Of a DNA stretch of 64,000 nt, positions 52,790 to 64,000 are shown one piece after another; within the stretch, counting starts at the first letter, position 1, and every line of letters begins with the position of its first letter. Below the pieces are notes generated by a model. That model searched no databases. It saw only the letters and a list, made by a program, of their open reading frames with translations, and was not told the origin of the DNA. Source of the stretch: Alphaproteobacteria bacterium (GTDB taxonomy: Bacteria; Pseudomonadota; Alphaproteobacteria; Micavibrionales; Micavibrionaceae); the NCBI GenBank assembly GCA_021775915.1, contig JAJFGW010000029.1:62001-126000 (forward strand). The letters are read 5' to 3'. A program made the position numbers and the translations under genes.

Positions 52790-55489
52790 CTACGAAGAGC
52801 GCATGGTAAGCCCCTGCAGACCTGAATTAACAGAACCGAGAGCCATTTGTGATCCCATGAAGGTGTACCGAACAAGGTTTGCCGCCGGATCGCCAGACTG
52901 CTCGCCAAAGGTGGAGACACTGGCCCCTACCCAACGCAAAACATTATTCGGAATAAGGTCCACTAATTTAAAAGACGACATGGCAAGCATATAAACGATA
53001 ATGGCATACATAATTGTATGAAAGAGTCTGTCTGCAGAATTTCTTAAATAATCAATACTACCAACCTCCGCGCCAACACCAACGCCAAGACCCGTGTTTG
53101 TTACGTCTGCTGCTGCCTGCAAGCCCTCTTTACTGCCATCAAAACCCATAACATTTGAAACAACCAGCTGCCAGACTTCGTTCAAAATTTGAACTTGCGC
53201 GGCAAAAATTACAATCCCGGCAAGCATACCAAAAACAATCAAAATCGGCCTGAGAAGAATTTCAAGAATAAGAAAATAACCATTCATAGCCGCGGGCCCG
53301 GGCAAGCCTTCACCATCAATCCGAATATGAGCCAGCGCCCACAAAGGCAATCCCACCATGGCTTCAAATATGCCTTTGATCCAGCCACCGACCGCAAAGA
53401 AAAAATAGATGAAGGGCAAAAACGGCAGAATGTAAAACAGTATAAAACCAATCGACAAACCAATTAACGCCACCTGCCCGGCAAAACTGGAAGCCGCCAT
53501 AGCAACACTACCAACCAGATCGCGACCAAGAATATTAGCAATACCACCAACAACACCGGAGCCAAATGAAAAGCCAAGATTTGTTACCGAACTTTCAATA
53601 AGGCTGCGTCCAATACCAATAAGCTGTGCCAAAGGATGAATATCCAGATTGCTCTGCATCTCAAACAAACCGGTCAAACCAAAAATTGATATAATAGAAT
53701 CTATAAAAGTATTACCGGAAGGCTGGACAAGAGACCCCCACCAGAATTGCTGGGCATAATAATAGGCCAGCGCAGGATGTTTATCCCTTTCATTTTCAAA
53801 CTCAATCATATTGCCATTGGACAAAGACGGATTAAACCGACCCTGCCCTTCAACAAAATCATTTTGTATACGTCTCTGACTCTTAACATGTTCCATGACT
53901 TCGGGATAAAGGTGCGGTGTTGGTATGCCATAAACAGAAGAAAAAAGCCCGCCCGTATATTCCGCTACTTTCTGATACCACATCGCCGCGCCGGCCCACC
54001 CCAGCTGTGTATAATTATCACGCCACTCTGCAGCAACCTGCGCATCTCTGGCTTCTTCGATTAAATCAGGAATATCCTGATTAAACCAGTCCAGTTCGGC
54101 AGCAATATAATTACTATTAGGCATGACTGCATCGGGCTCTCTTTCAGCCACAGGCATATAGCGCAAAGCAATATTTTCGGCGTAAAAGTCATTTGAAGGG
54201 TCTGTCCACATATCAAAAACAATATCATAATACCCCTCCTGCATACGCAGGGCACCCGGCTGATCAATATCCTTGGTATGGAAGATAATTTCACCGCAAA
54301 TTGGCTTCACATGGCCCGTAAAGCGTTTGAAGTTAATGTCATCGACAATACCAAAACGTACAACGATATCACCGTTATTCGCGTTAGCCAGTGCGGCATT
54401 AAAACCTCCTGCGACAAAAGGTGCGCTCTGCTCACCAAAAACCTGGAAGGCCTCGATCGGTGGCCCTCCTCCAATACCTCTCCGGTTAAGAAGTCTTTCC
54501 GAATGTTTGCATGTCTGGGCAACAAAGGTAAATTCAATCAGGGTAGTAACAAGCGGTGCATCTGGCCGGGCAACAAGCTCTTCCGGTCCGGCAACCAACT
54601 CCCCAACACGAGTAACGGGCATGGGAAGATAGTCAAGGTCTGTCATAAAGCTCTGCCAGCCGTTCGTCGCAAGGCTCGATCCCCACTTGGCAACCGTCAG
54701 CGTTAAAAGCTGAGCGCCGTTCAATCCATAAGATAGCGGCGTTAGAAGAGCAATGGCAATTACAAGTCTGGTCGGTGCCCACATCCCGTTAAAACGCTTG
54801 CCGAAAGGCGTCCCGCTTTGCGCTGTTTCACCAACAATTGTGACAATCATATACATGAAAATCATAAAACCGATGACAAGAATACCGATATTGTAAAACT
54901 CAAACAAGGCATGAAGCGCCGTATGAAACTGGGTAGGCCCGATAGAGGCCGGCCCAACAGGAACGCCAGCCGCAACACCCGGCACAAAAGCCAATTGGCA
55001 TTGCACGCCGGCATTAATAGCGCATGAATTAAAGATAGGACGGGGAGGGCCAAAACCAAAAGTCAGGTCAAGCATACGAAAAGCCAAATCATATGTCGGG
55101 TCTTGAGTGACAAAGAAAGATGCATAATATGCTGCCGCACCGGCACTGGCAGAAGGGATGAGGAGCCCCCCCAAAAGAAGAGCAAACTGCAAAAATAAAA
55201 TAGCGATACCAATCAGCAACGTAAAAAATATAATAATCTGATCAATATTTTCCTTCTTAAATTCCAAATTGCGCCGCGCTTCAAAAACAACATGGCGTAT
55301 CCCGTACTTTCCAGCATTTGCCGGATTAAGGTAAGGGTGATCACCAGGAAGCAAGCGCACATTTTTATAAACATAGGCCATATAAAAGGCGATATAAGAA
55401 AACCCGGACGCAAAGAACGCAATGATACGCGGCAAAATACCCGGAAGCAGGGTATAGCGTAAAATTTGTCCTGTTGTCACATTGCTCAT
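52790..55489 (-). CDS. DotA/TraY-family membrane protein, paralogue 1
   Basis: 899 residues; AAGAGA precedes the ATG. N-terminal amphipathic segment (FFASGFSYIAFYMAYVYK), TM segments near 83-110, 190-217 and 240-262, a large central soluble domain (~270-630, with LGWAGAAMWYQKVAE and HPLAQL), then a hydrophobic C-terminal block with FIYFFFAVGGWIKGIFEAM and WALAHIRIDG. This matches DotA of type IVB (Dot/Icm) secretion and TraY of IncI plasmids, inner-membrane proteins. Last gene of a four-member leftward array; most diverged from copies 2 and 3 along with copy 4. Confidence 0.82.
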   Translation of the reverse strand: MSNVTTGQILRYTLLPGILPRIIAFFASGFSYIAFYMAYVYKNVRLLPGDHPYLNPANAGKYGIRHVVFEARRNLEFKKENIDQIIIFFTLLIGIAILFLQFALLLGGLLIPSASAGAAAYYASFFVTQDPTYDLAFRMLDLTFGFGPPRPIFNSCAINAGVQCQLAFVPGVAAGVPVGPASIGPTQFHTALHALFEFYNIGILVIGFMIFMYMIVTIVGETAQSGTPFGKRFNGMWAPTRLVIAIALLTPLSYGLNGAQLLTLTVAKWGSSLATNGWQSFMTDLDYLPMPVTRVGELVAGPEELVARPDAPLVTTLIEFTFVAQTCKHSERLLNRRGIGGGPPIEAFQVFGEQSAPFVAGGFNAALANANNGDIVVRFGIVDDINFKRFTGHVKPICGEIIFHTKDIDQPGALRMQEGYYDIVFDMWTDPSNDFYAENIALRYMPVAEREPDAVMPNSNYIAAELDWFNQDIPDLIEEARDAQVAAEWRDNYTQLGWAGAAMWYQKVAEYTGGLFSSVYGIPTPHLYPEVMEHVKSQRRIQNDFVEGQGRFNPSLSNGNMIEFENERDKHPALAYYYAQQFWWGSLVQPSGNTFIDSIISIFGLTGLFEMQSNLDIHPLAQLIGIGRSLIESSVTNLGFSFGSGVVGGIANILGRDLVGSVAMAASSFAGQVALIGLSIGFILFYILPFLPFIYFFFAVGGWIKGIFEAMVGLPLWALAHIRIDGEGLPGPAAMNGYFLILEILLRPILIVFGMLAGIVIFAAQVQILNEVWQLVVSNVMGFDGSKEGLQAAADVTNTGLGVGVGAEVGSIDYLRNSADRLFHTIMYAIIVYMLAMSSFKLVDLIPNNVLRWVGASVSTFGEQSGDPAANLVRYTFMGSQMALGSVNSGLQGLTMRSS

Positions 55490-55518
55490 TCTCTTTTAAC
55501 CTTTCGCATCATGGCCAA

Positions 55519-58413
55519 TTAGTTCGACCGACCAGTCAGTTCGCCCAGCGCCTGCCCACCGGATTTTCCTGCTGCAGAAAGCCCGCCAGCTGCCTGCTTC
55601 ATCGGCCCTGAAACCATATTGGCACCGATAAAGCTATTACGGACCAAATTCTGCGCCGTATCACCACTTTGATCACCAAAGCTCGAAACACTGGCACCCA
55701 TCCAGCGCAAAACATGATTTGGCACCAAATCAATCAACTTAAATGAAGACATAGCCATCATATAACAAAGAATGGCATACATGATTGTGAAGAAAAACTC
55801 ATCTACGGCCCCCCGTAAATATTCTATACTTCCTGTTTCTGCAACGCCTCCTTTTGCCGCTGCGATTCCTCCTGATACATCAACAGAAAAACCGGCCACA
55901 TTAGAAACAACAAAAGACCATATCTCATTCAAAATCTGGACCTGAGCGGTAAAAATAGTAAGGCCGGCAATAAAACCAAAGACAATAAGGAGCGGCCTTA
56001 AGAAAATTTCCAGGATCAGGTAATACCCCCCCATAGCCGCATCACCGGGCAACCCCTCACCATCAATACGAATATGTGCGAGCGCCCATAACGGCACACC
56101 GACCATGGCCTCAAAAACAGCCTTGATCCAGCCGCCAACAGCAAAAAAGAAATAAATAAACGGCAGGAATGGAATAACATAAAATAAGACAAAACCAATC
56201 GCCAGCCCTATCATCGCCACCTGAAAAAAGAAGCTACTGGCTGCGCCTGAAAAACTACCAATTTGGTATTGCTGGAATAAATTTGCAAGACCACCGCCCA
56301 AACCAGCAGCAACCGAATAACCCAAATTACGGATTGCCGAATCAACAAGCGCTCTACCAATCGCAGAAAGTTGGGCAAGCGGATGAATATTTTGATTTTC
56401 CGGTCTGGTAATCGAAAATAACCCTCCCGTACCGAATATAGTATTGATAGCATCAATATACACGCTACTGCTTTTGCCCCTATCGGCGTAATGGTCGCGC
56501 CATATGGTTTCAGCATGGTACATAGCATCGGCAATTTGCTTTTCTGCATCATCTTCTAATTGAGTCTGCCCGTCCGTTCCCCTGTAAAGGCGGTGAGTAT
56601 TTTCTCCCGAAACAGCACCATCACTACCGGCTCGTTTTTTACGGGTCTCTTCCATGATAAAAGGATATTTTTTGACTGTCGGCATGGCAAAAACAGCGCT
56701 AACCAGACCACCATTAAGCTGGGCAATCTTGTTATACCAAACCGCCGCACCGCCCCAGCCAAGTTCTGTTAGTGACTCTGCCCATTCAGGGGAGCCTTGT
56801 TGATTAACAACAGCCAGGTCTACTTGAAAATTGATATATTCTTCGTAGGCTTCACGCAGGGACGTCAATTCTGCCGGTGTCGGCAAAAGCTCGTCCTTGT
56901 CATTAAAATATGAAATATGACGGCTGGCCATCTTTTCACCGATTTCATTGAAATTTATAGCAGCGCCCAGCGCAGAAGACCCTGAGGTAATGTCATCCCA
57001 CATTACAAATACAAGCAAATAATATTGCAATAACATAGACAGAGATCCCGGCTCAGTAACAACGCCCCCTCCTACATTAGTATAGGTTTGATCCAGTGAT
57101 ATTTCACCGCATAAAGGCGCCACACTCCCGTCCCATGTCTGGTATCGATCACCTTCACCCAGATTATCCGCAAATGCGCCAAAACGAACATTAACAGTGC
57201 CGCCGTTAAAATACTCTACGGCATCAGCATACGAAGTATCTAAAAGTCGCACGGGAGCCAAGGTTATATTTTCTGGATTCACCAGCCAGGCATCAATCTC
57301 AACCGGTGCGCGGCCAATCCTCTCGTGATACATACGCTCATAAGAAATTTTGCACGTTGCCAGAATTGAACCGAATGCCATCAAAGTATTAACAGGGGGC
57401 GTATCAGGTCTGGCGACAAGCGTGTCTGCAGCACCCAGCAACGTCTCTTCACCAGTTAAGGCATTGTTATAAATAACCCAGCCATTGGTAGCAAAGGCAG
57501 ACCCCCATTTCGCCGCATACATTAAAACCCACTGAGCAGAGTTTAAGCCATAGGTAATAGGCACCAATAACCCCATAGCGACAACAAGTCGTACCGGCAC
57601 CCAGAGATGGTTGAAGCGGCGACCAAAAGCAGTGCCTGTTTGTGCTGTCTCCGCAGCGACGGCAAAGATAAAATATAAAAAGATGAAAACACCGATCACC
57701 AACAAGCCGACACTATAAACCTGAAGCATCCCGCGCAAAGCTTCGTGATAGGGCCATGGAAAATTCAGGTTCTGGGTTGCTGTACGAGCATAATCAACAT
57801 AATACGTCCTGTCCGGTGTTATATCACGACTAGACTGCGCCAGATCAAAACATTCTATACCCTGAACAACACATGTGTAGCCACCGGCGGAATCAGTAAA
57901 AAAGCTCGTATTAATAGCCCCGCCAACACCAGGAATTCCAAACACGCGATCCAGTAAAACAAAAGCGAGATCATGCGTAACAGTTGCTCCCGGATCAGGG
58001 CCATTCGCATGCCCAATTTTAAAATAAGCGAAGAAATTAAGTGGGCTGCTACTAGGGTAAACACCCGCAGCATGAGCCACCTCCACAAAACCGGAGACAA
58101 AAAGTATAAAAAGCTGCGCCGCCATAAGAATTATACCCAAAATCATCAGGACATAAATCGCAATCTGGTCGATATTCTCCTTTTTAATTTCAAGATGATT
58201 ACCGGCTTCAGCAACAACATGACGAATACCAAAACGCCCCATATTGGCAGGGCTTAAATAAGGGTGGCCATCAGGCAACAACCGCACAGCACGATAAGTC
58301 TGCGCCATAAAAAAAGCGACATAGGAAAAACCAGAATAAAACAAATCCTGTATCCGCGGCATGAGCTGCGGAGTCAGGGTATATTTTAAAACTTTTTTTG
58401 TTTCTGCTTTCAT
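55519..58413 (-). CDS. DotA/TraY-family membrane protein, paralogue 2
   Basis: 964 residues. Same architecture as its neighbours: the N-terminus YTLTPQLMPRIQDLFYSGF is nearly identical to paralogue 3. Central motifs ELGWGGAAVWYNKIAQLNGG and IHPLAQLSAIGRA; C-terminal FIYFFFAVGGWIKAVFEAM, then NHVLRWMGASVSSFGDQSGD. The central domain (~300-660) varies most between copies, including DNTxGEG-type insertions and Cys residues. 29 nt separate it from paralogue 1. A recent duplication with paralogue 3 is likely from the end similarity. Confidence 0.82.
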   Translation of the reverse strand: MKAETKKVLKYTLTPQLMPRIQDLFYSGFSYVAFFMAQTYRAVRLLPDGHPYLSPANMGRFGIRHVVAEAGNHLEIKKENIDQIAIYVLMILGIILMAAQLFILFVSGFVEVAHAAGVYPSSSPLNFFAYFKIGHANGPDPGATVTHDLAFVLLDRVFGIPGVGGAINTSFFTDSAGGYTCVVQGIECFDLAQSSRDITPDRTYYVDYARTATQNLNFPWPYHEALRGMLQVYSVGLLVIGVFIFLYFIFAVAAETAQTGTAFGRRFNHLWVPVRLVVAMGLLVPITYGLNSAQWVLMYAAKWGSAFATNGWVIYNNALTGEETLLGAADTLVARPDTPPVNTLMAFGSILATCKISYERMYHERIGRAPVEIDAWLVNPENITLAPVRLLDTSYADAVEYFNGGTVNVRFGAFADNLGEGDRYQTWDGSVAPLCGEISLDQTYTNVGGGVVTEPGSLSMLLQYYLLVFVMWDDITSGSSALGAAINFNEIGEKMASRHISYFNDKDELLPTPAELTSLREAYEEYINFQVDLAVVNQQGSPEWAESLTELGWGGAAVWYNKIAQLNGGLVSAVFAMPTVKKYPFIMEETRKKRAGSDGAVSGENTHRLYRGTDGQTQLEDDAEKQIADAMYHAETIWRDHYADRGKSSSVYIDAINTIFGTGGLFSITRPENQNIHPLAQLSAIGRALVDSAIRNLGYSVAAGLGGGLANLFQQYQIGSFSGAASSFFFQVAMIGLAIGFVLFYVIPFLPFIYFFFAVGGWIKAVFEAMVGVPLWALAHIRIDGEGLPGDAAMGGYYLILEIFLRPLLIVFGFIAGLTIFTAQVQILNEIWSFVVSNVAGFSVDVSGGIAAAKGGVAETGSIEYLRGAVDEFFFTIMYAILCYMMAMSSFKLIDLVPNHVLRWMGASVSSFGDQSGDTAQNLVRNSFIGANMVSGPMKQAAGGLSAAGKSGGQALGELTGRSN

Positions 58414-58446
58414 ATTTTATCTTTTATTTGCAACTTTCTTATTATT

Positions 58447-61323
58447 CTAACTTGAGCGCCCAAAAAGTTCACCCATAGCCGCGCCGCCCTCCTTTGCAGC
58501 ACCACGGGCACTACCCATAGCGCCCTTAAGCGGATTTGAAACCATGTTCGAACCCATAAAACTATTACGAACCAAATTCTCTGCCGGGTCGCCACTTTGA
58601 TCACCAAAGGTCGAAACACTCGCGCCCATCCAACGCAATACATGGTTCGGTATCAGGTCAATCATCTTGAATGACGACATGGCAAGCATATAAACAACGA
58701 TCGCGTAAATGACGGTAAAGAAGAGTTTATCAATAGCGCCACGCAAGAAACGCCCGCCGCCTGTCTGGTTTTGGTCCTTAAGTGCCTTGGCAGATTCAAC
58801 ATCAAATCCCGTGACATTGGAAACAATCAACGGCCAGATTTCATGGAGTACCTGCACCTGCGCTGCAAAAATTGTAATGCTGGCAATAAAACCAAAGACA
58901 ACAAGGATCGGCCTTAAGAAAATTTCCAGGATTAGATAATATCCCCCCATGGCCGCATCGCCGGGCAAGCCATTACCATCAATACGAATATGCGCGAGCG
59001 CCCATAACGGCACACCGACCATGGCCTCAAAGATTCCTTTGATCCAGCCGCCAACAGCAAAGAAGAAGTAAATAAATGGCAAAAGAGGAATAATATAAAA
59101 TAAAACAAAACCGAGCGTTAAACCAATCATGGCGGCCTGTGTCAGAAAGCTACTGGCTGTCATCGCAACCCGCCCCACCATATGGTCGCCAAAAAGATTA
59201 ATAATACCGCCGCCCAGACCGGCCGCCGCAGAATAACCCAAATTTCTTACCGCGGTATCGATGATAGTGCGGCCAATAGAAGCAAGCTGCGCCAGCGGAT
59301 GAACTCCGGCATCAGCATTGTCATGAATATTAAACAACCCGGCGGTACCGAATATAGTGTTAATAATATCAATATACATATTACCGCCCTGTTTCTGTTC
59401 TGCATAATGATCGCCCCATATAGTTTGCGTTAAAAATAACGCTTTACCAATCTGGGTTTCTTCTTCGTCAGCGAGAACAATCGGCGCATCAGGGCCTCTA
59501 TAAAGCTGGTGACGCGTTGAGCCAGGTGCATCAGTGTCCGACGCCGCTTTTTTCCGGCGCACTTTTTCCATGATTAACGGATATCTTTTGATCGCAGGCA
59601 GAGCATAAACGGAACCAATGAGCGAGCCATTAAGCTGGGCTACCTTATTGTACCAGACCGCGGCCCCGCCCCAGCCAAGCGCCCTTAATTGTTCCGTCCA
59701 TTCGGTAGAATCTTGCTGAAGCTCAACGGCCGTATCTATAAAACCATTTATATAGTCTTGATACCACAACCTCATATCGTCTAAAAGAGTGGCATTTGGC
59801 AAGGGTGCGTTCGGATCGTTATCAATAGGCAAGTAACGATTGGCCGCATTAAAGCCTATACATCCCATTTTAAGAAGACCATCGGCTGGCGTATTAGGCT
59901 GAGCAGCTTCAAAAGTAGCCGCGTCACAACCAGAGGCCGCAAAAGTCTGAGAAGCGTCAAACCAAATAAAATCCTTCATCAAATTCCAATATGTTTCGAG
60001 CATAAAATCCGCGCCGGGGGAAATACTTTCACTATCGTCATACGGCCTTGTCGCCTGTATTACAATTTCACCGCAAAAAGGAACAACAGCACCATCACGG
60101 GTCTGATGCTCTTCATCCCTAAGTTCTCCAAAACGGATAATAATATCACCCTGATTAAAATAAAGAACAGCATCTTCAAATGTTGTGTCCTCAAGTCTAA
60201 CGGGAGCCATACCAACCTCATCCGTATTCACAAGCCAGGCATCAATATCAACCGGGTCACGGTCGTCCCGCTCATGATACATTCGTTCGTAAGCCTGCAC
60301 ACAAGTTGCCAGTATTGTACCGAACTCCACCAATGTATTGACCGGCGGGTAATTAGGGTGAGCAACAAGCGTACTGGTGCCCCCCAAAAGTGTAGGGGCG
60401 CCATCCGCAACTGCTCCGGCTAAAGCCGCATCATGAAACAATATCCAGCCATTGGTAGCAAAACCGGAACCCCATTTTGCGGCAAACATGAGAATATATT
60501 GTCCGGAATTCAGACCACTCGCCAGAGGCACAAGAAGACCAATCGCGGCAACAATACGAAGCGGCGCCCAGACATGATTAAAGCGCTGGCCGAACGGCGT
60601 ACCGCTTTGCGCCGTTTCAGCAGCGACAGCGATCACAAAATAAATAACTATAAAAACGGCAATTAGTAATATGCCGATGCTATAGGCCTCAAAAATTTTA
60701 TGCAGGGCAAGATGAAACGGCCATGGGAAATTAAGGGCGATCGGAGCCGTGCGAAAATAGTCAGTATAGATAACACTGTCTGGTGTAAATTCACGCGTGG
60801 ACTGGTTCAAATTAAAACACTGCACACCCTGCACCACACAGGTGGGATCACCACTTACGCCAGTAAAAAAATCGGGGAGGCCAAAAACCCGGTCAAGCAA
60901 GACAAGGGCAACATCGTGGGTGGCATCGGGCGTTAGAAAAAAGCCTAAAAAGGTCGTGGGCATAGCAATTCCGGAAGCATGGGCCGTTTGCACAAACATA
61001 CCCATACCCAGCATAAGCATCTGCGCCACCAAAAGAGCCATCCCGGCCAGCATCATAATATAGATAAGAATCTGATCTATATTTTCCCGCTTAAAGACAA
61101 GGTTATGGCCCGCCTCAACAATGACATGGCGCACACCGTAGCGGCCCATATTTGCTGCGCTTAAGTAAGGGTGACCAGCGGGAAGGAGACGCGCGGCGCG
61201 ATAAGTCTGCGCCATAAAAAAAGCAACGTAGGAAAAGCCGGAGAAAAAGAGTTCCTGTATCCGCGGCATAAGCTGCGGAGTTAAAGTATAACGTAGAATT
61301 TTTTTAGCAGTCTCATTCTCCAT
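58447..61323 (-). CDS. DotA/TraY-family membrane protein, paralogue 3
   Basis: 958 residues from the ATG at 61323 with GGTGA upstream; a GTG four codons earlier (61335) is possible. N-terminus YTLTPQLMPRIQELFFSGF; cytoplasmic loop AETAQSGTPFGQRFNHVWAP; central RALGWGGAAVWYNKVAQLNG and VHPLAQLASIGR; C-terminal FIYFFFAVGGWIKGIFEAM and NHVLRWMGASVSTFGDQSGD. Closest to paralogue 2. The central domain has an insertion with two extra Cys (GCDAATFEAAQ, KMGCIGFN). 33 nt before paralogue 2. Confidence 0.82.
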   Translation of the reverse strand: MENETAKKILRYTLTPQLMPRIQELFFSGFSYVAFFMAQTYRAARLLPAGHPYLSAANMGRYGVRHVIVEAGHNLVFKRENIDQILIYIMMLAGMALLVAQMLMLGMGMFVQTAHASGIAMPTTFLGFFLTPDATHDVALVLLDRVFGLPDFFTGVSGDPTCVVQGVQCFNLNQSTREFTPDSVIYTDYFRTAPIALNFPWPFHLALHKIFEAYSIGILLIAVFIVIYFVIAVAAETAQSGTPFGQRFNHVWAPLRIVAAIGLLVPLASGLNSGQYILMFAAKWGSGFATNGWILFHDAALAGAVADGAPTLLGGTSTLVAHPNYPPVNTLVEFGTILATCVQAYERMYHERDDRDPVDIDAWLVNTDEVGMAPVRLEDTTFEDAVLYFNQGDIIIRFGELRDEEHQTRDGAVVPFCGEIVIQATRPYDDSESISPGADFMLETYWNLMKDFIWFDASQTFAASGCDAATFEAAQPNTPADGLLKMGCIGFNAANRYLPIDNDPNAPLPNATLLDDMRLWYQDYINGFIDTAVELQQDSTEWTEQLRALGWGGAAVWYNKVAQLNGSLIGSVYALPAIKRYPLIMEKVRRKKAASDTDAPGSTRHQLYRGPDAPIVLADEEETQIGKALFLTQTIWGDHYAEQKQGGNMYIDIINTIFGTAGLFNIHDNADAGVHPLAQLASIGRTIIDTAVRNLGYSAAAGLGGGIINLFGDHMVGRVAMTASSFLTQAAMIGLTLGFVLFYIIPLLPFIYFFFAVGGWIKGIFEAMVGVPLWALAHIRIDGNGLPGDAAMGGYYLILEIFLRPILVVFGFIASITIFAAQVQVLHEIWPLIVSNVTGFDVESAKALKDQNQTGGGRFLRGAIDKLFFTVIYAIVVYMLAMSSFKMIDLIPNHVLRWMGASVSTFGDQSGDPAENLVRNSFMGSNMVSNPLKGAMGSARGAAKEGGAAMGELFGRSS

Positions 61324-61357
61324 GTTATCTTTCACCAGTTAACTGGTCAGTTATCAT

Positions 61358-64000
61358 CTATTTCTTAGGGGGCAAATTACCCATCCCTGACAAACCGCCT
61401 CCACCGCCTTTTCCTATATTACCAGCACCGCCGGGAACTACCGAAACATTACCAGCATTTCTGTTTGCCAACATACCGAACGGCAAACCAACGCCCTGGC
61501 CTGCTGCCTTCGCGCCTTGATTTAACGCGCCCGTCACCTGACCCGCTATCTGATTACCGCCAAAGGCCGCATATTGCACCATACCTTGCGCCGGGTCATC
61601 GCGCTGGTCACCAAAGGACTGCACGCCGGCGCCCATCCAACGCAAAATACTATTTGGAATCTGGTCGATCATTTTAAAAGATGATGTCGCGAGCATATAA
61701 ACCAGAATGGTATAAATAATCGTAAAGAAAAATTCATCAATCGGATTACGCTTAAACTCAATCCCGGCAGCCCCTACCGTATTACAGTCAGTACAATCAA
61801 AACCCGTCAGGTTTTCAACAACCAGATCAAAAACACCGTTTAAGGTACGCGCCATCGCCGAAAAAATAGCCATCGCAGCAATAAGGCCAAAGACAGTAAG
61901 AACTGGCCTTATAAAGATTTCAAAGATCAGAAAATAACCGTTTGAAGCGGCATCACCGGAAAAACCATTACCATCCACACGCAAATGCGCAAGCGCCCAT
62001 AGCGGCACGCCGACCATGGCTTCAAAAATTGTTTTAACCCAGCCGCCAACAGCGAAGAAAAAATACATAAAAGGCATAAAGGGCAAAATGTAGTAAAGCA
62101 TAAACCCTATAGTCAGCCCGACCGTTGTAAAGGCAACAAACATGCCGCTAATCGCGCTCGCCGCCGCCCCCAGATGCGTACCGATAATTTCACCCATGCC
62201 ACCTCCGGCCGAAAAGACAAGGGCCGACAAAAGATTACGGATAGACGCCTCAATAATGCTTTTGCCTAATGCGGAGAGCTGCGCCAAAGGATGAACATCG
62301 TCATTTTCACGCATCGTGAACAAACCGCCAATACCAAATACGGAATTAAGCAAATCAAAGAAAACATTACCGCTGGTTTGTAAATCACTGGCCAGCCCCT
62401 TGCCATCGGTAAACCAGTATTTGTAGGCCTCACAAAGCGTTTTACCAATGGGAAGGTCCCTGCCCTGAACCAGAGACACAGCACGGAAACCCTGCACAGA
62501 AGGACAATAACGATTTTCGGTATCAACGGCCTCATCATGAGAGCGCCGCTCTTCCTGAATATTTTCCATGATCATCGGAACTTTTCCGGGCGTGGGCGTA
62601 TTAATGGCGGCAGTAAATAATCCACCATTCCATTCGGCAATACGGTTGTACCATATGGCCGCCCCACCCCAGCCACGCGCCAGCAATTCATCGGGAATAT
62701 CATAAAAAGTAGCGCCAATACCAATCATCGTGTTGTACGCCGTCTCCATCTCCCCAAGATAAGTTCCCGCAACCCCGGCAACGACTGTTTTCTTAAATTC
62801 AGAATCAGGAAGCTGGATACACTCTCCCGGCAAACCGGCACCAACAGCACAAGGGTCCTCCGGAAAACCTTCATAAATTGACACCGCCCTCTCTGAGAAC
62901 TCCAACAGATCATCGTCAAACAAAAGATCTCTGACCATCTCAAAAAAAGCGCGCTGAAGAAGATAAGGGCCTACTCTCTGATCTCCGGGTTCAGAACCGT
63001 CTGCATTTCCGGCAACATTAGTGTGAATGGTTATTTCACCGCATGTAGGCTCAACATCACCCGTATAGTTTTTGTCCGTTGCATCAGGGAATCTATGGCC
63101 AAACACAATAGTGATGTCCCTGCTATTATAAAATGCCAGAGCATCCGCATAATCGTAAGCGTCATCCATCTCTTCTGCAAAAGTGTTACCATTCTCATTT
63201 TTAACCAGCCAGCCTCTAACATCTCTTACGTTAGGAGGCGTGGGGTAACTTACCCTGTAAGCCTCCTTACAGGTTTGAACAACGGACATATAAGCGACGA
63301 TATGTGTAATATCCGCTGGCTTGGGGCGGGCGATCAAGGTTTCATTATGCGTACCAACGGGCGTATCGGCGGCGGCCAATTCATTATTAAATATAATCCA
63401 GCTATTGGTGGCAAAACCGGAACCAAATTTAGCGGCAAGCAAAGTAATATATTGGGCAGAATTCAAACCATAATTTAACGGCACAAGAAGGCCAATGGCC
63501 GCGACAAGTCTCAGAGGCGCATAAATATGATTAAAACGACGACCAAACGGCGTTCCGGTATTGGCCGTCTCACCAACAACAAGAAGGATGTAGTATAGAA
63601 AAATGACAATACCGACGATCAGAATGGCGTAGCTATAATATTGAAACAGCTCCTGCAAGGCGCGATTAAAAACTGGAATAGCTCCAAATCCAGTACCGGC
63701 AGGGGCGAACTTGGAATTAAATATCTCAGGAACGCCAAAGACTTTATCCAGCAACATGTGAGCAATATCCAGACACTGGGCGCCGGGGTTAACGCATTCA
63801 GGTGTCGTAAACAAACCTGCAAAAGCGGCAAGCCCTCCGGCCGCGGCAGGCTTTACAAGAATCCCAAGAGCCAGTCCGGCGCATTGCAAAATAAGAAGAA
63901 CAAAACCAATAAGCAGCGCGAAGAAAATAATAACCTGATCTATATTTTCTTTCTTAATGACAAGGTTATTGGCCGCCTCGGCAATCACATGGCGAATACC
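61358..64000 (-). CDS. DotA/TraY-family membrane protein, paralogue 4 (5' truncated by window)
   Basis: 881 codons are visible; the frame runs off the right edge (the last codons read GIRH, matching GIRHVV of the other copies), so the GTG at 63988 is not the start and about 60 residues are missing. Central RGWGGAAIWYNRIAEWNGG and VHPLAQLSALGKS; C-terminal FMYFFFAVGGWVKTIFEAM. The C-terminus is extended with a Gly/Asn-rich tail (GGAGNIGKGGGGGLSGMG). A CTDCNTVG motif lies between the last TM pairs. 22-34 nt upstream of paralogue 3. Confidence 0.82.
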   Translation of the reverse strand, partial: GIRHVIAEAANNLVIKKENIDQVIIFFALLIGFVLLILQCAGLALGILVKPAAAGGLAAFAGLFTTPECVNPGAQCLDIAHMLLDKVFGVPEIFNSKFAPAGTGFGAIPVFNRALQELFQYYSYAILIVGIVIFLYYILLVVGETANTGTPFGRRFNHIYAPLRLVAAIGLLVPLNYGLNSAQYITLLAAKFGSGFATNSWIIFNNELAAADTPVGTHNETLIARPKPADITHIVAYMSVVQTCKEAYRVSYPTPPNVRDVRGWLVKNENGNTFAEEMDDAYDYADALAFYNSRDITIVFGHRFPDATDKNYTGDVEPTCGEITIHTNVAGNADGSEPGDQRVGPYLLQRAFFEMVRDLLFDDDLLEFSERAVSIYEGFPEDPCAVGAGLPGECIQLPDSEFKKTVVAGVAGTYLGEMETAYNTMIGIGATFYDIPDELLARGWGGAAIWYNRIAEWNGGLFTAAINTPTPGKVPMIMENIQEERRSHDEAVDTENRYCPSVQGFRAVSLVQGRDLPIGKTLCEAYKYWFTDGKGLASDLQTSGNVFFDLLNSVFGIGGLFTMRENDDVHPLAQLSALGKSIIEASIRNLLSALVFSAGGGMGEIIGTHLGAAASAISGMFVAFTTVGLTIGFMLYYILPFMPFMYFFFAVGGWVKTIFEAMVGVPLWALAHLRVDGNGFSGDAASNGYFLIFEIFIRPVLTVFGLIAAMAIFSAMARTLNGVFDLVVENLTGFDCTDCNTVGAAGIEFKRNPIDEFFFTIIYTILVYMLATSSFKMIDQIPNSILRWMGAGVQSFGDQRDDPAQGMVQYAAFGGNQIAGQVTGALNQGAKAAGQGVGLPFGMLANRNAGNVSVVPGGAGNIGKGGGGGLSGMGNLPPKK

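What the first reader, a model, noticed from the sequence alone, without database searches (positions are those of the whole stretch)
52790..64000. Four tandem DotA/TraY-family paralogues with no other Dot/Icm gene in view
Dot/Icm and IncI-type systems normally carry a single DotA/TraY. Here at least four copies of ~900-960 residues follow one another on the minus strand with 22-35 nt gaps. The shared parts (N-terminus LMPRIQ.LF.SGF, loop GTPFG.RFN, GWGGAA.WYN, HPLAQL, YFFFAVGGW.K, WALAH.R.DG) are near-identical, while the central domain differs. Copies 2 and 3 look recently duplicated. A set of alternative subunits forming a mixed channel, or several parallel channels, would be a new arrangement of type IVB secretion.
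Basis: partly seen in the sequence, partly recalled or inferred. Interest (0 to 1): 0.8.

Follow-up and report, generated by a model that had tools for sequence, protein, structure and literature searches.

The report
Tandem DotA channel paralogues in predatory bacteria
A family of bacteria that includes the bacterial predator Micavibrio carries three or four different genes in a row for the channel subunit of one secretion machine, where other such machines have one, which suggests a channel built from, or switched between, several distinct subunits.

Summary
The four genes are real DotA/TraY (B6-type) channel subunits: TIGR04346 201-259 bits; models of two copies match Legionella DotA at Z 19.8-19.9. 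Corrections: the fourth gene starts outside the window (64195). The copies are 40-59% identical, not near-identical. The closest pair (D2/D3) split before the related genome G108 diverged. The rest of a type IVB system lies elsewhere in the genome.
The lineage is the Micavibrio group. All 34 arrays that I read in the window's family hold three or four adjacent dotA genes (30 with three, 4 with four), whereas DotH is single in each of the 132 of 142 order genomes that have it. The nearest relative in another genome sits at the same array position for 105 of 106 copies, in another genus for 100 of 106: the positions are old and mostly not homogenised. Tandem VirB6 paralogues of the Rickettsia rvh system are the close precedent, in a type IVA machine.
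Best reading: co-expressed, non-redundant subunits of one T4BSS, most likely a mixed protochannel; alternative homomeric channels remain open. New variant of a known kind.

The parts
52790..55489 (-). D1, dotA paralogue at array position C (last in transcription order), 899 aa
   Evidence: TIGR04346 200.9 bits; model matches Legionella DotA 9ngy Z 19.9, 580 aligned; nearest relatives are last-position copies of other genomes
55519..58413 (-). D2, dotA paralogue, second B-type copy (B2), 964 aa
   Evidence: TIGR04346 251.2 bits; sister of D3 by a duplication shared with genome G108
58447..61335 (-). D3, dotA paralogue at position B (B1), 962 aa
   Evidence: TIGR04346 259.2 bits; PDB phmmer hit DotA 9ngy 6.6e-22; model vs 9ngy Z 19.8 and vs TrwI/VirB6 7o3v Z 10.0
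61358..64000 (-). D4, dotA paralogue at position A (first in transcription order), 945 aa; its 5' end lies outside the window at 64195 (L001:4195)
   Evidence: TIGR04346 252.5 bits on the part in the window; complete ORF in L001:1358-4195

Best explanation
The four genes encode B6-type (DotA/TraY) inner-membrane channel subunits of one chromosomal, apparently relaxase-independent type IVB secretion system of a Micavibrio-group bacterium. The system's other genes are scattered over at least three further contigs. Shown: family and fold (fold for two of the four), tandem operon-like layout, an old set of three positions (A, B, C) kept in order in the arrays read, a later doubling of B in this genus, and single copies of the core genes tested. 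Inferred: the genes are co-transcribed and all copies are made; they are not redundant; and, since they share one core complex in which Legionella DotA forms a pentamer with IcmX, the most likely arrangement is a mixed DotA protochannel in which different subunits occupy the ring. Their conserved membrane helices would hold the ring and the docking sites, and their divergent, probably periplasmic parts would give distinct faces towards an IcmX-like partner, substrates or the target cell. The natural use in this lineage would be delivery of proteins to prey (inference from lifestyle only).
For: DotA_TraY HMM, PDB profile and fold matches. One core complex: DotH exactly one match in each of the 132 of 142 order genomes that have it; DotB one 382-405-bit match in each of 20 genomes, all others at most 166 bits. 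34 of 34 arrays read hold three or four adjacent genes on one strand; 63 of 72 gaps are at most 100 nt. Position is heritable: the nearest relative in another genome sits at the same position for 105 of 106 copies (whole protein), 102 and 103 of 106 for the conserved or the variable part alone; in another genus (19 genera) 100, 95 and 94 of 106. Cys345 and Cys421 (D3 numbering) are kept in 106 of 106. Pentameric DotA-IcmX: PDB 9ngy and 9nh0 hold ten DotA chains in two entries; PMC12857230 and PMC12981334, passages.
Against: No expression, interaction or structure of a complex was seen. Rate covariation among A, B and C did not clearly exceed that with neighbouring control proteins. No residue separates the three classes cleanly (0 at 90%/10%), so distinct roles are not visible as fixed sites. 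No IcmX-like partner was identified. G104 and G107 have arrays but no DotH match; G055 has DotH but no DotA match. B and C are not each one clade over the family, and in 13 of 106 cases a paralogue of the same genome is nearer than any copy of another genus, so the set was in part rebuilt or converted.
Confidence: 0.5

Rival explanations
1. Alternative homomeric channels: the same core complex is fitted with a ring of only A, only B or only C, by growth phase, substrate or prey.
For: The middle part diverges most (mean paralogue identity 21-34% in D3 301-540 against 66-71% in the best conserved windows); positions are stable, as expected of specialised versions.
Against: All copies lie in one operon-like block on one strand in 34 of 34 arrays read, which favours joint production; no excess of sigma-70-like promoters over shuffles in the array (other promoter types are not covered).
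Confidence: 0.3
2. Division of labour beyond the ring: one paralogue is the channel, the others act as accessory or released proteins, for example at the contact with the other cell.
For: Legionella DotA was found in the culture supernatant (PMC12981334, passage citing Nagai and Roy 2001); lengths and variable parts differ.
Against: A last-position and a B copy both model onto the DotA channel fold at Z 19.8-19.9; 54 invariant columns are shared by all 18 copies, which include all positions.
Confidence: 0.13
3. Dosage or drift: redundant copies kept by chance or for amount.
For: Tandem duplication is frequent: this genus doubled B, G097/G098 have four copies, and G126, G359 and G447 appear to have duplicated on their own.
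Against: Own copies are 40-59% identical, the copies read in 34 arrays are full-length open frames of 872-1098 aa, and positions are kept.
Confidence: 0.05
4. Each paralogue belongs to a separate type IVB system.
For: One exception, G098, has four DotA, two T4CP-like proteins of the right size and three DotI-like genes.
Against: DotH is single in 32 of the 34 array genomes (no match in G104, G107), and DotB is single in the 17 of those 34 that were tested; G098 too has one DotH and one DotB.
Confidence: 0.02

Closest known systems
Dot/Icm DotA (Legionella) and IncI TraY, type IVB systems
   Same: Same family (TIGR04346), same fold, same kind of partner genes (DotB, C, D, G, H, I, L, M, N, IcmT)
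   Different: One gene there (recalled; not searched here in Legionella or IncI). Single copies were seen in six sister-family genomes, G121, G140, G118, G119, G002 and G130; three or four divergent ones here
Rickettsia/Rickettsiales rvh type IV system with VirB6a-e (PMC2653234; abstract, sections 8 part 1 and 16, passages)
   Same: B6-type subunit amplified as an array of old, divergent paralogues while the genes of the machine lie scattered in islets
   Different: Type IVA machine in obligate intracellular bacteria, paralogues about 80% divergent in the shared domain, with very divergent flanking regions; here type IVB, 53-60% divergent for five of the six pairs (41% for D2/D3), in the Micavibrio group
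pT4SSi of Micavibrionales (PMC9418006, passages)
   Same: Reports relaxase-lacking type IVB systems in seven marine Micavibrionales
   Different: The word DotA does not occur in its main text, so nothing on its copy number

Membership tests
DotA/TraY (TIGR04346) | Score over the curated cut-off of 100 bits | tested here: met
   200.9, 251.2, 259.2 and 252.5 bits for D1, D2, D3, D4
DotA/TraY (TIGR04346) | Legionella-type equivalog NF033886 over its cut-off of 500 bits | tested here: not met
   150-186 bits: DotA family, not the Legionella equivalog
DotA/TraY (TIGR04346) | Fold of the solved DotA | tested here: met
   9ngy Z 19.8, 583 aligned, rmsd 6.9 (D3) and Z 19.9, 580 aligned, rmsd 6.5 (D1); models of moderate confidence (mean pLDDT 68-69). 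D2 and D4 not modelled
Type IVB secretion system | Core parts DotC, DotD, DotH, DotG | tested here: met
   PF16932 257 bits, PF16816 124 bits, PF12293 269 bits, all over cut-off; DotG matches only the C-terminal part of its model, 139.5 bits against a cut-off of 750
Type IVB secretion system | DotI, IcmT | tested here: met
   NF038072 206.7 bits over 175; NF038220 89.1 over 40
Type IVB secretion system | DotF | tested here: inconclusive
   NF038218 26.4 bits, E 4.8e-06, cut-off 200
Type IVB secretion system | Coupling complex DotL, DotM, DotN | tested here: met
   TrbC_conju 405 bits, DotM 151 bits, DotN 96 bits: E-values 5e-121 to 2e-27, but all below the curated cut-offs of 800, 230 and 100
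Type IVB secretion system | ATPases DotB and DotO | tested here: inconclusive
   DotB 387 bits, below the 463.3 cut-off but far above PilT-like hits. DotO: a 1002-aa ORF in the right place with a Walker-A-like GAGKS, no family or PDB hit
Type IVB secretion system | IcmX/VirB5-like partner of DotA | tested here: inconclusive
   None among the proteins scanned; no dedicated search made
Conjugative IncI-type system | Relaxase alongside the machine | tested here: not met
   10 of 20 genomes have neither PF03432 nor PF03389; hits in the other 10 are patchy, the own genome's one is weak (26 bits). Other relaxase families not tested
Rickettsiales rvh (VirB6 arrays) | VirB6/TrbL domain (PF04610, named in PMC2653234) | tested here: inconclusive
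   No Pfam family reached its cut-off in the four proteins; the models resemble TrwI/VirB6 in fold (Z 9.9-10.0), a level that the tool says can be reached by unrelated helical proteins
Rickettsiales rvh (VirB6 arrays) | Type IVA core genes | not tested
   No VirB9/VirB10-type search made; the core found is of type IVB

The most novel reading that the evidence does not exclude
The family's secretion machine runs on an obligate hetero-oligomeric DotA ring, with fixed places for A, B and C subunits in the pentamer (comparable in principle to a nicotinic receptor), so that a five-fold channel is made asymmetric to match the six-fold ATPases or to handle different cargo. This would have arisen independently of, and in parallel with, the VirB6 arrays of Rickettsiales.
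Probability: 0.35. Interest if true: 0.8.

Novelty: new variant of a known kind. Interest (0 to 1): 0.6.

Why it matters
The DotA/VirB6 ring is five-fold while the ATPases below it are six-fold, and how they work together is unclear (PMC12624023, passages). A lineage that has kept several distinct versions of just this subunit, with single copies of the core genes tested, gives natural material to ask whether the ring is uniform or mixed and what its divergent part recognises. It also draws attention to a type IVB system in Micavibrio, whose 2011 genome paper reported no evidence of type III or IV secretion (PMC3189940, passage), as a candidate weapon for attacking prey. Amplification of the B6 subunit in Rickettsiales (type IVA), in this family, and apparently separately in other alphaproteobacteria (type IVB) suggests a common selective cause.

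Tried and rejected
Gene fusion: two genomes (G012, G058) were reported with open frames of 1812 and 1829 aa across two dotA genes, which would have been strong evidence for co-assembly. Reading the junctions showed stop codons and separate starts, so there is no fusion.

Pfam DotA PF11388 found nothing in the genome nor in any control; that answer is void, not negative. Within-genome homogenisation: the nearest relative of all lies in the same genome for 2 (conserved part) and 0 (variable part) of 106 copies. This count is helped by close relatives in the set (for example G046/G047 and G105/G107); leaving out the own genus, a same-genome paralogue is nearer than any copy of another genus in 13 of 106 (whole), 10 (conserved) and 16 (variable). 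So recent homogenisation is rejected, early B/C conversion or re-duplication is not. Rate covariation as evidence for co-assembly: inconclusive (18 genomes). Class-specific fixed residues: none (main subclades only). Clean single origin of A, B and C: they need 4, 7 and 6 label changes on a quick IQ-TREE tree, of which starred branches force at least 1, 5 and 5. For that tree I used 20 of the 34 arrays, so 44 of the 106 family copies and 5 of the 9 outgroup rows were left out. Promoter and terminator scans were at or below chance. The two VIA-align lists show no other family at Z 8 or more.

Full report
What was claimed and what is there. The window ends in four tandem minus-strand ORFs: D1 52790-55489 (899 aa), D2 55519-58413 (964), D3 58447-61335 (962) and D4 from 61358 to beyond the window edge. 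The neighbouring stretch of the same contig shows D4 whole: L001:1358-4195, that is to window coordinate 64195, 945 aa. The gaps are 29, 33 and 22 nt. All four score 201-259 bits against NCBIfam TIGR04346 DotA_TraY (cut-off 100), and the same model over the whole 2.45-Mb genome finds these four and no more. The Pfam DotA model gave nothing, also not in its controls, so it says nothing. Upstream of D4 lies a 559-aa gene that I take for an ABC-F protein by likeness to its counterpart in G047.

Family and fold. The only solved structure found by sequence is Legionella DotA, 9ngy and 9nh0, with ten chains in two entries (D3 alone 6.6e-22; profile of 18 relatives 1.4e-28). AlphaFold models of D3 (pLDDT 68.4, pTM 0.63) and D1 (69.2, 0.59) match 9ngy DotA at Z 19.8 (583 aligned, rmsd 6.9) and Z 19.9 (580, rmsd 6.5). 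The next family is R388 TrwI/VirB6, at Z 10.0 (247 residues aligned of 261) and Z 9.9 (255 of 261); everything else is at Z 5.8 or lower. The tool warns that up to about Z 13 can be chance for helical proteins, so the VirB6 match is support, not proof. D2 and D4 were not modelled.

How different the copies are. The six pairs of D1-D4 are 40-47% identical, except D3-D2 at 59%. Orthologues in the related genome G108 are 64-70% identical. So D2 and D3 are the youngest pair, but the doubling is older than the G000/G108 split, and the tree agrees. The best conserved windows (66-71% among paralogues) lie at 241-300 and 721-840 of D3, in or next to hydrophobic stretches. The most divergent ones lie at 301-540 (21-34%) and 601-660 (25%).

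The rest of the machine. The genome holds, on other contigs: DotI, DotH, DotG, a weak DotF match, a TraQ-like protein, DotN and a 1002-aa probable DotO on C31; DotD, DotC, DotB and IcmT on C43; and DotM and a TrbC/DotL-like coupling protein on C16. DotG, DotF, DotN, DotB, DotM, DotL and TraQ score below the NCBIfam curated cut-offs; except for DotF (E 4.8e-06) their E-values are 2e-12 or better. DotO rests on position, size and a Walker-A-like stretch; no family or PDB search found it. IcmX was not found. G047 has a like-sized and like-ordered set of ORFs, of which its DotL and DotM were confirmed by NCBIfam and DotH, DotI and DotB by genome search.

Who this is. Named relatives of D3 (33-40% identical) are a 'Micavibrio aeruginosavorus' MAG and four other MAGs named as Alphaproteobacteria or Rhodospirillaceae. 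Two of those records share exact contig lengths with G111 and G073 of the window's family. G047 has 2,481,983 bases, the size stated for M. aeruginosavorus ARL-13 in PMC3189940 (passages); that G046 is strain EPB, and that the order is GTDB's Micavibrionales, is recall. That paper says there is no evidence for type III or IV secretion in ARL-13 (passage), yet G047 has three DotA genes and the matches just named. PMC9418006 (passages) already reports relaxase-lacking type IVB systems in seven Micavibrionales, so the presence of a type IVB system in the order is not new.

Distribution. Of 142 genomes of the order, 135 have a DotA_TraY match; in the window's family 101 of 104, and 97 of 104 with three or more matches (a long gene can give two matches, so I read arrays directly). 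I fetched 33 further array regions of that family, chosen from the listed matches with enough flank, so not a random sample, plus 7 regions of sister families. With the window that makes 34 family arrays from 19 genera: 30 with three genes and 4 with four (G000, G108, G097, G098). Six sister-family regions have one gene; the seventh, G126, has three long ones. Some other sister-family genomes show three to six matches (G004, G005, G113, G123, G124, G127) that I did not read, so single copy is not shown for all sisters. In a class-wide draw 17 of 385 genomes match, four of them from the window's family; there at most three candidates per genome were scored, so copy numbers are lower bounds. Of the others, G359 has two adjacent copies, G447 two nearby, and G241 two apart. 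In a careful tree the copies of G126, of G359 and of G447 each group by genome, as independent duplications would (G447_2 and both G241 copies are long branches, so these joins are less sure).

Old positions. Taking order of transcription as A (first), B (middle) and C (last), 105 of 106 copies have their nearest relative in another genome at the same position; with conserved parts only 102 of 106, with variable parts only 103 of 106. Close relatives in the set help this count. Asking for the nearest copy in another genus gives 100, 95 and 94 of 106. In 13 of 106 cases a paralogue of the same genome is nearer than any copy of another genus. A mixture-model tree of 66 of the 115 proteins shows A as a deep line in most of the family, while B and C part inside each subclade, which means repeated early B/C duplication or early conversion. 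The neighbourhood is stable too: relatives of the window's MlaA-like, MlaC-like and ABC-F-like genes occur in 25, 24 and 30 of the 40 fetched regions (the ABC-F number may include other ABC proteins), and in G047 the flanks are LptF/G, MlaA, MlaC on one side and M50 protease, ABC-F on the other.

One machine. DotH has exactly one match in each of the 132 of 142 genomes that have it. DotB has one strong match in each of 20 genomes. DotI has one strong match in each of 20, with a weaker second in 18 of 20. A coupling-protein candidate of 746-921 aa is single in 19 of 20, and G098 has two; only those of the window's genome and G047 were named by NCBIfam, and several genomes also have stronger TraG/TraD-type hits of other sizes. 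Against one machine everywhere: G104 and G107 have arrays but no DotH match, and G055 has DotH but no DotA match. Relaxase families PF03432 and PF03389 are both missing in 10 of the same 20 genomes, so conjugation is unlikely to be the common function.

How it works, and how sure. In Legionella DotA and IcmX form a pentameric protochannel that rearranges for translocation (PMC12857230 and PMC12981334, passages; the original, Yue 2025, is not held). With a single core and several B6 subunits in one operon-like block (72 gaps, median 26 nt, 63 at most 100 nt), joint assembly into mixed rings is the simplest reading, next to alternative uniform rings. Nothing here shows expression or contact, rate covariation gave no clear signal, and no class-specific fixed residue was found. 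I put the mixed ring at about one half and alternative rings at about 0.3.

Known or new. PMC2653234 (abstract, sections 8 part 1 and 16, passages) describes five old, divergent VirB6 copies in the type IVA rvh system of Rickettsia, with arrayed orthologues of four of them in relatives and the system's genes scattered in islets. Bao 2009, seen only as a reference title ([quoted passage not shown] That is the same idea in another machine. For a type IVB system I found no report of DotA arrays (searches, judged from listings and a few passages; open-licence PMC papers only, so subscription papers on Micavibrio were not seen, and terms with a slash could not be searched). I file it as a new variant of a known kind.

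Noticed in passing
L092:5914-6801 (own contig C43) and L091:5902-6771 (G047): A DsbC/DsbG-like thiol-disulfide gene sits near dotD-dotC-dotB-icmT in both genomes, while all 106 DotA copies of the family keep a cysteine pair (Cys345, Cys421 of D3); a folding helper for DotA is possible.
   Followed up: partly
G000:C22:2019-2348, and 17 of the 19 other genomes (two places in G098): A second, weaker DotI/IcmL homologue exists apart from the strong one; role unknown.
   Followed up: no
G047 (L079, L090, L091, L100): A genome with the exact size of M. aeruginosavorus ARL-13 carries type IVB genes although its genome paper reports no type III or IV system.
   Followed up: partly
L063 (G126), L102 (G359), L101 (G447): Apparently independent DotA duplications in other alphaproteobacterial families; in G126 three copies of up to 1330 aa.
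   Followed up: partly
G055 (one contig): DotH present but no DotA match in a one-contig genome of the same family; loss or assembly gap.
   Followed up: no
L085:4697-5941: DotG is only 414 aa and matches only positions 737-1007 of the 1008-position Legionella-type DotG model; the IncI TraO model has 381 positions.
   Followed up: no
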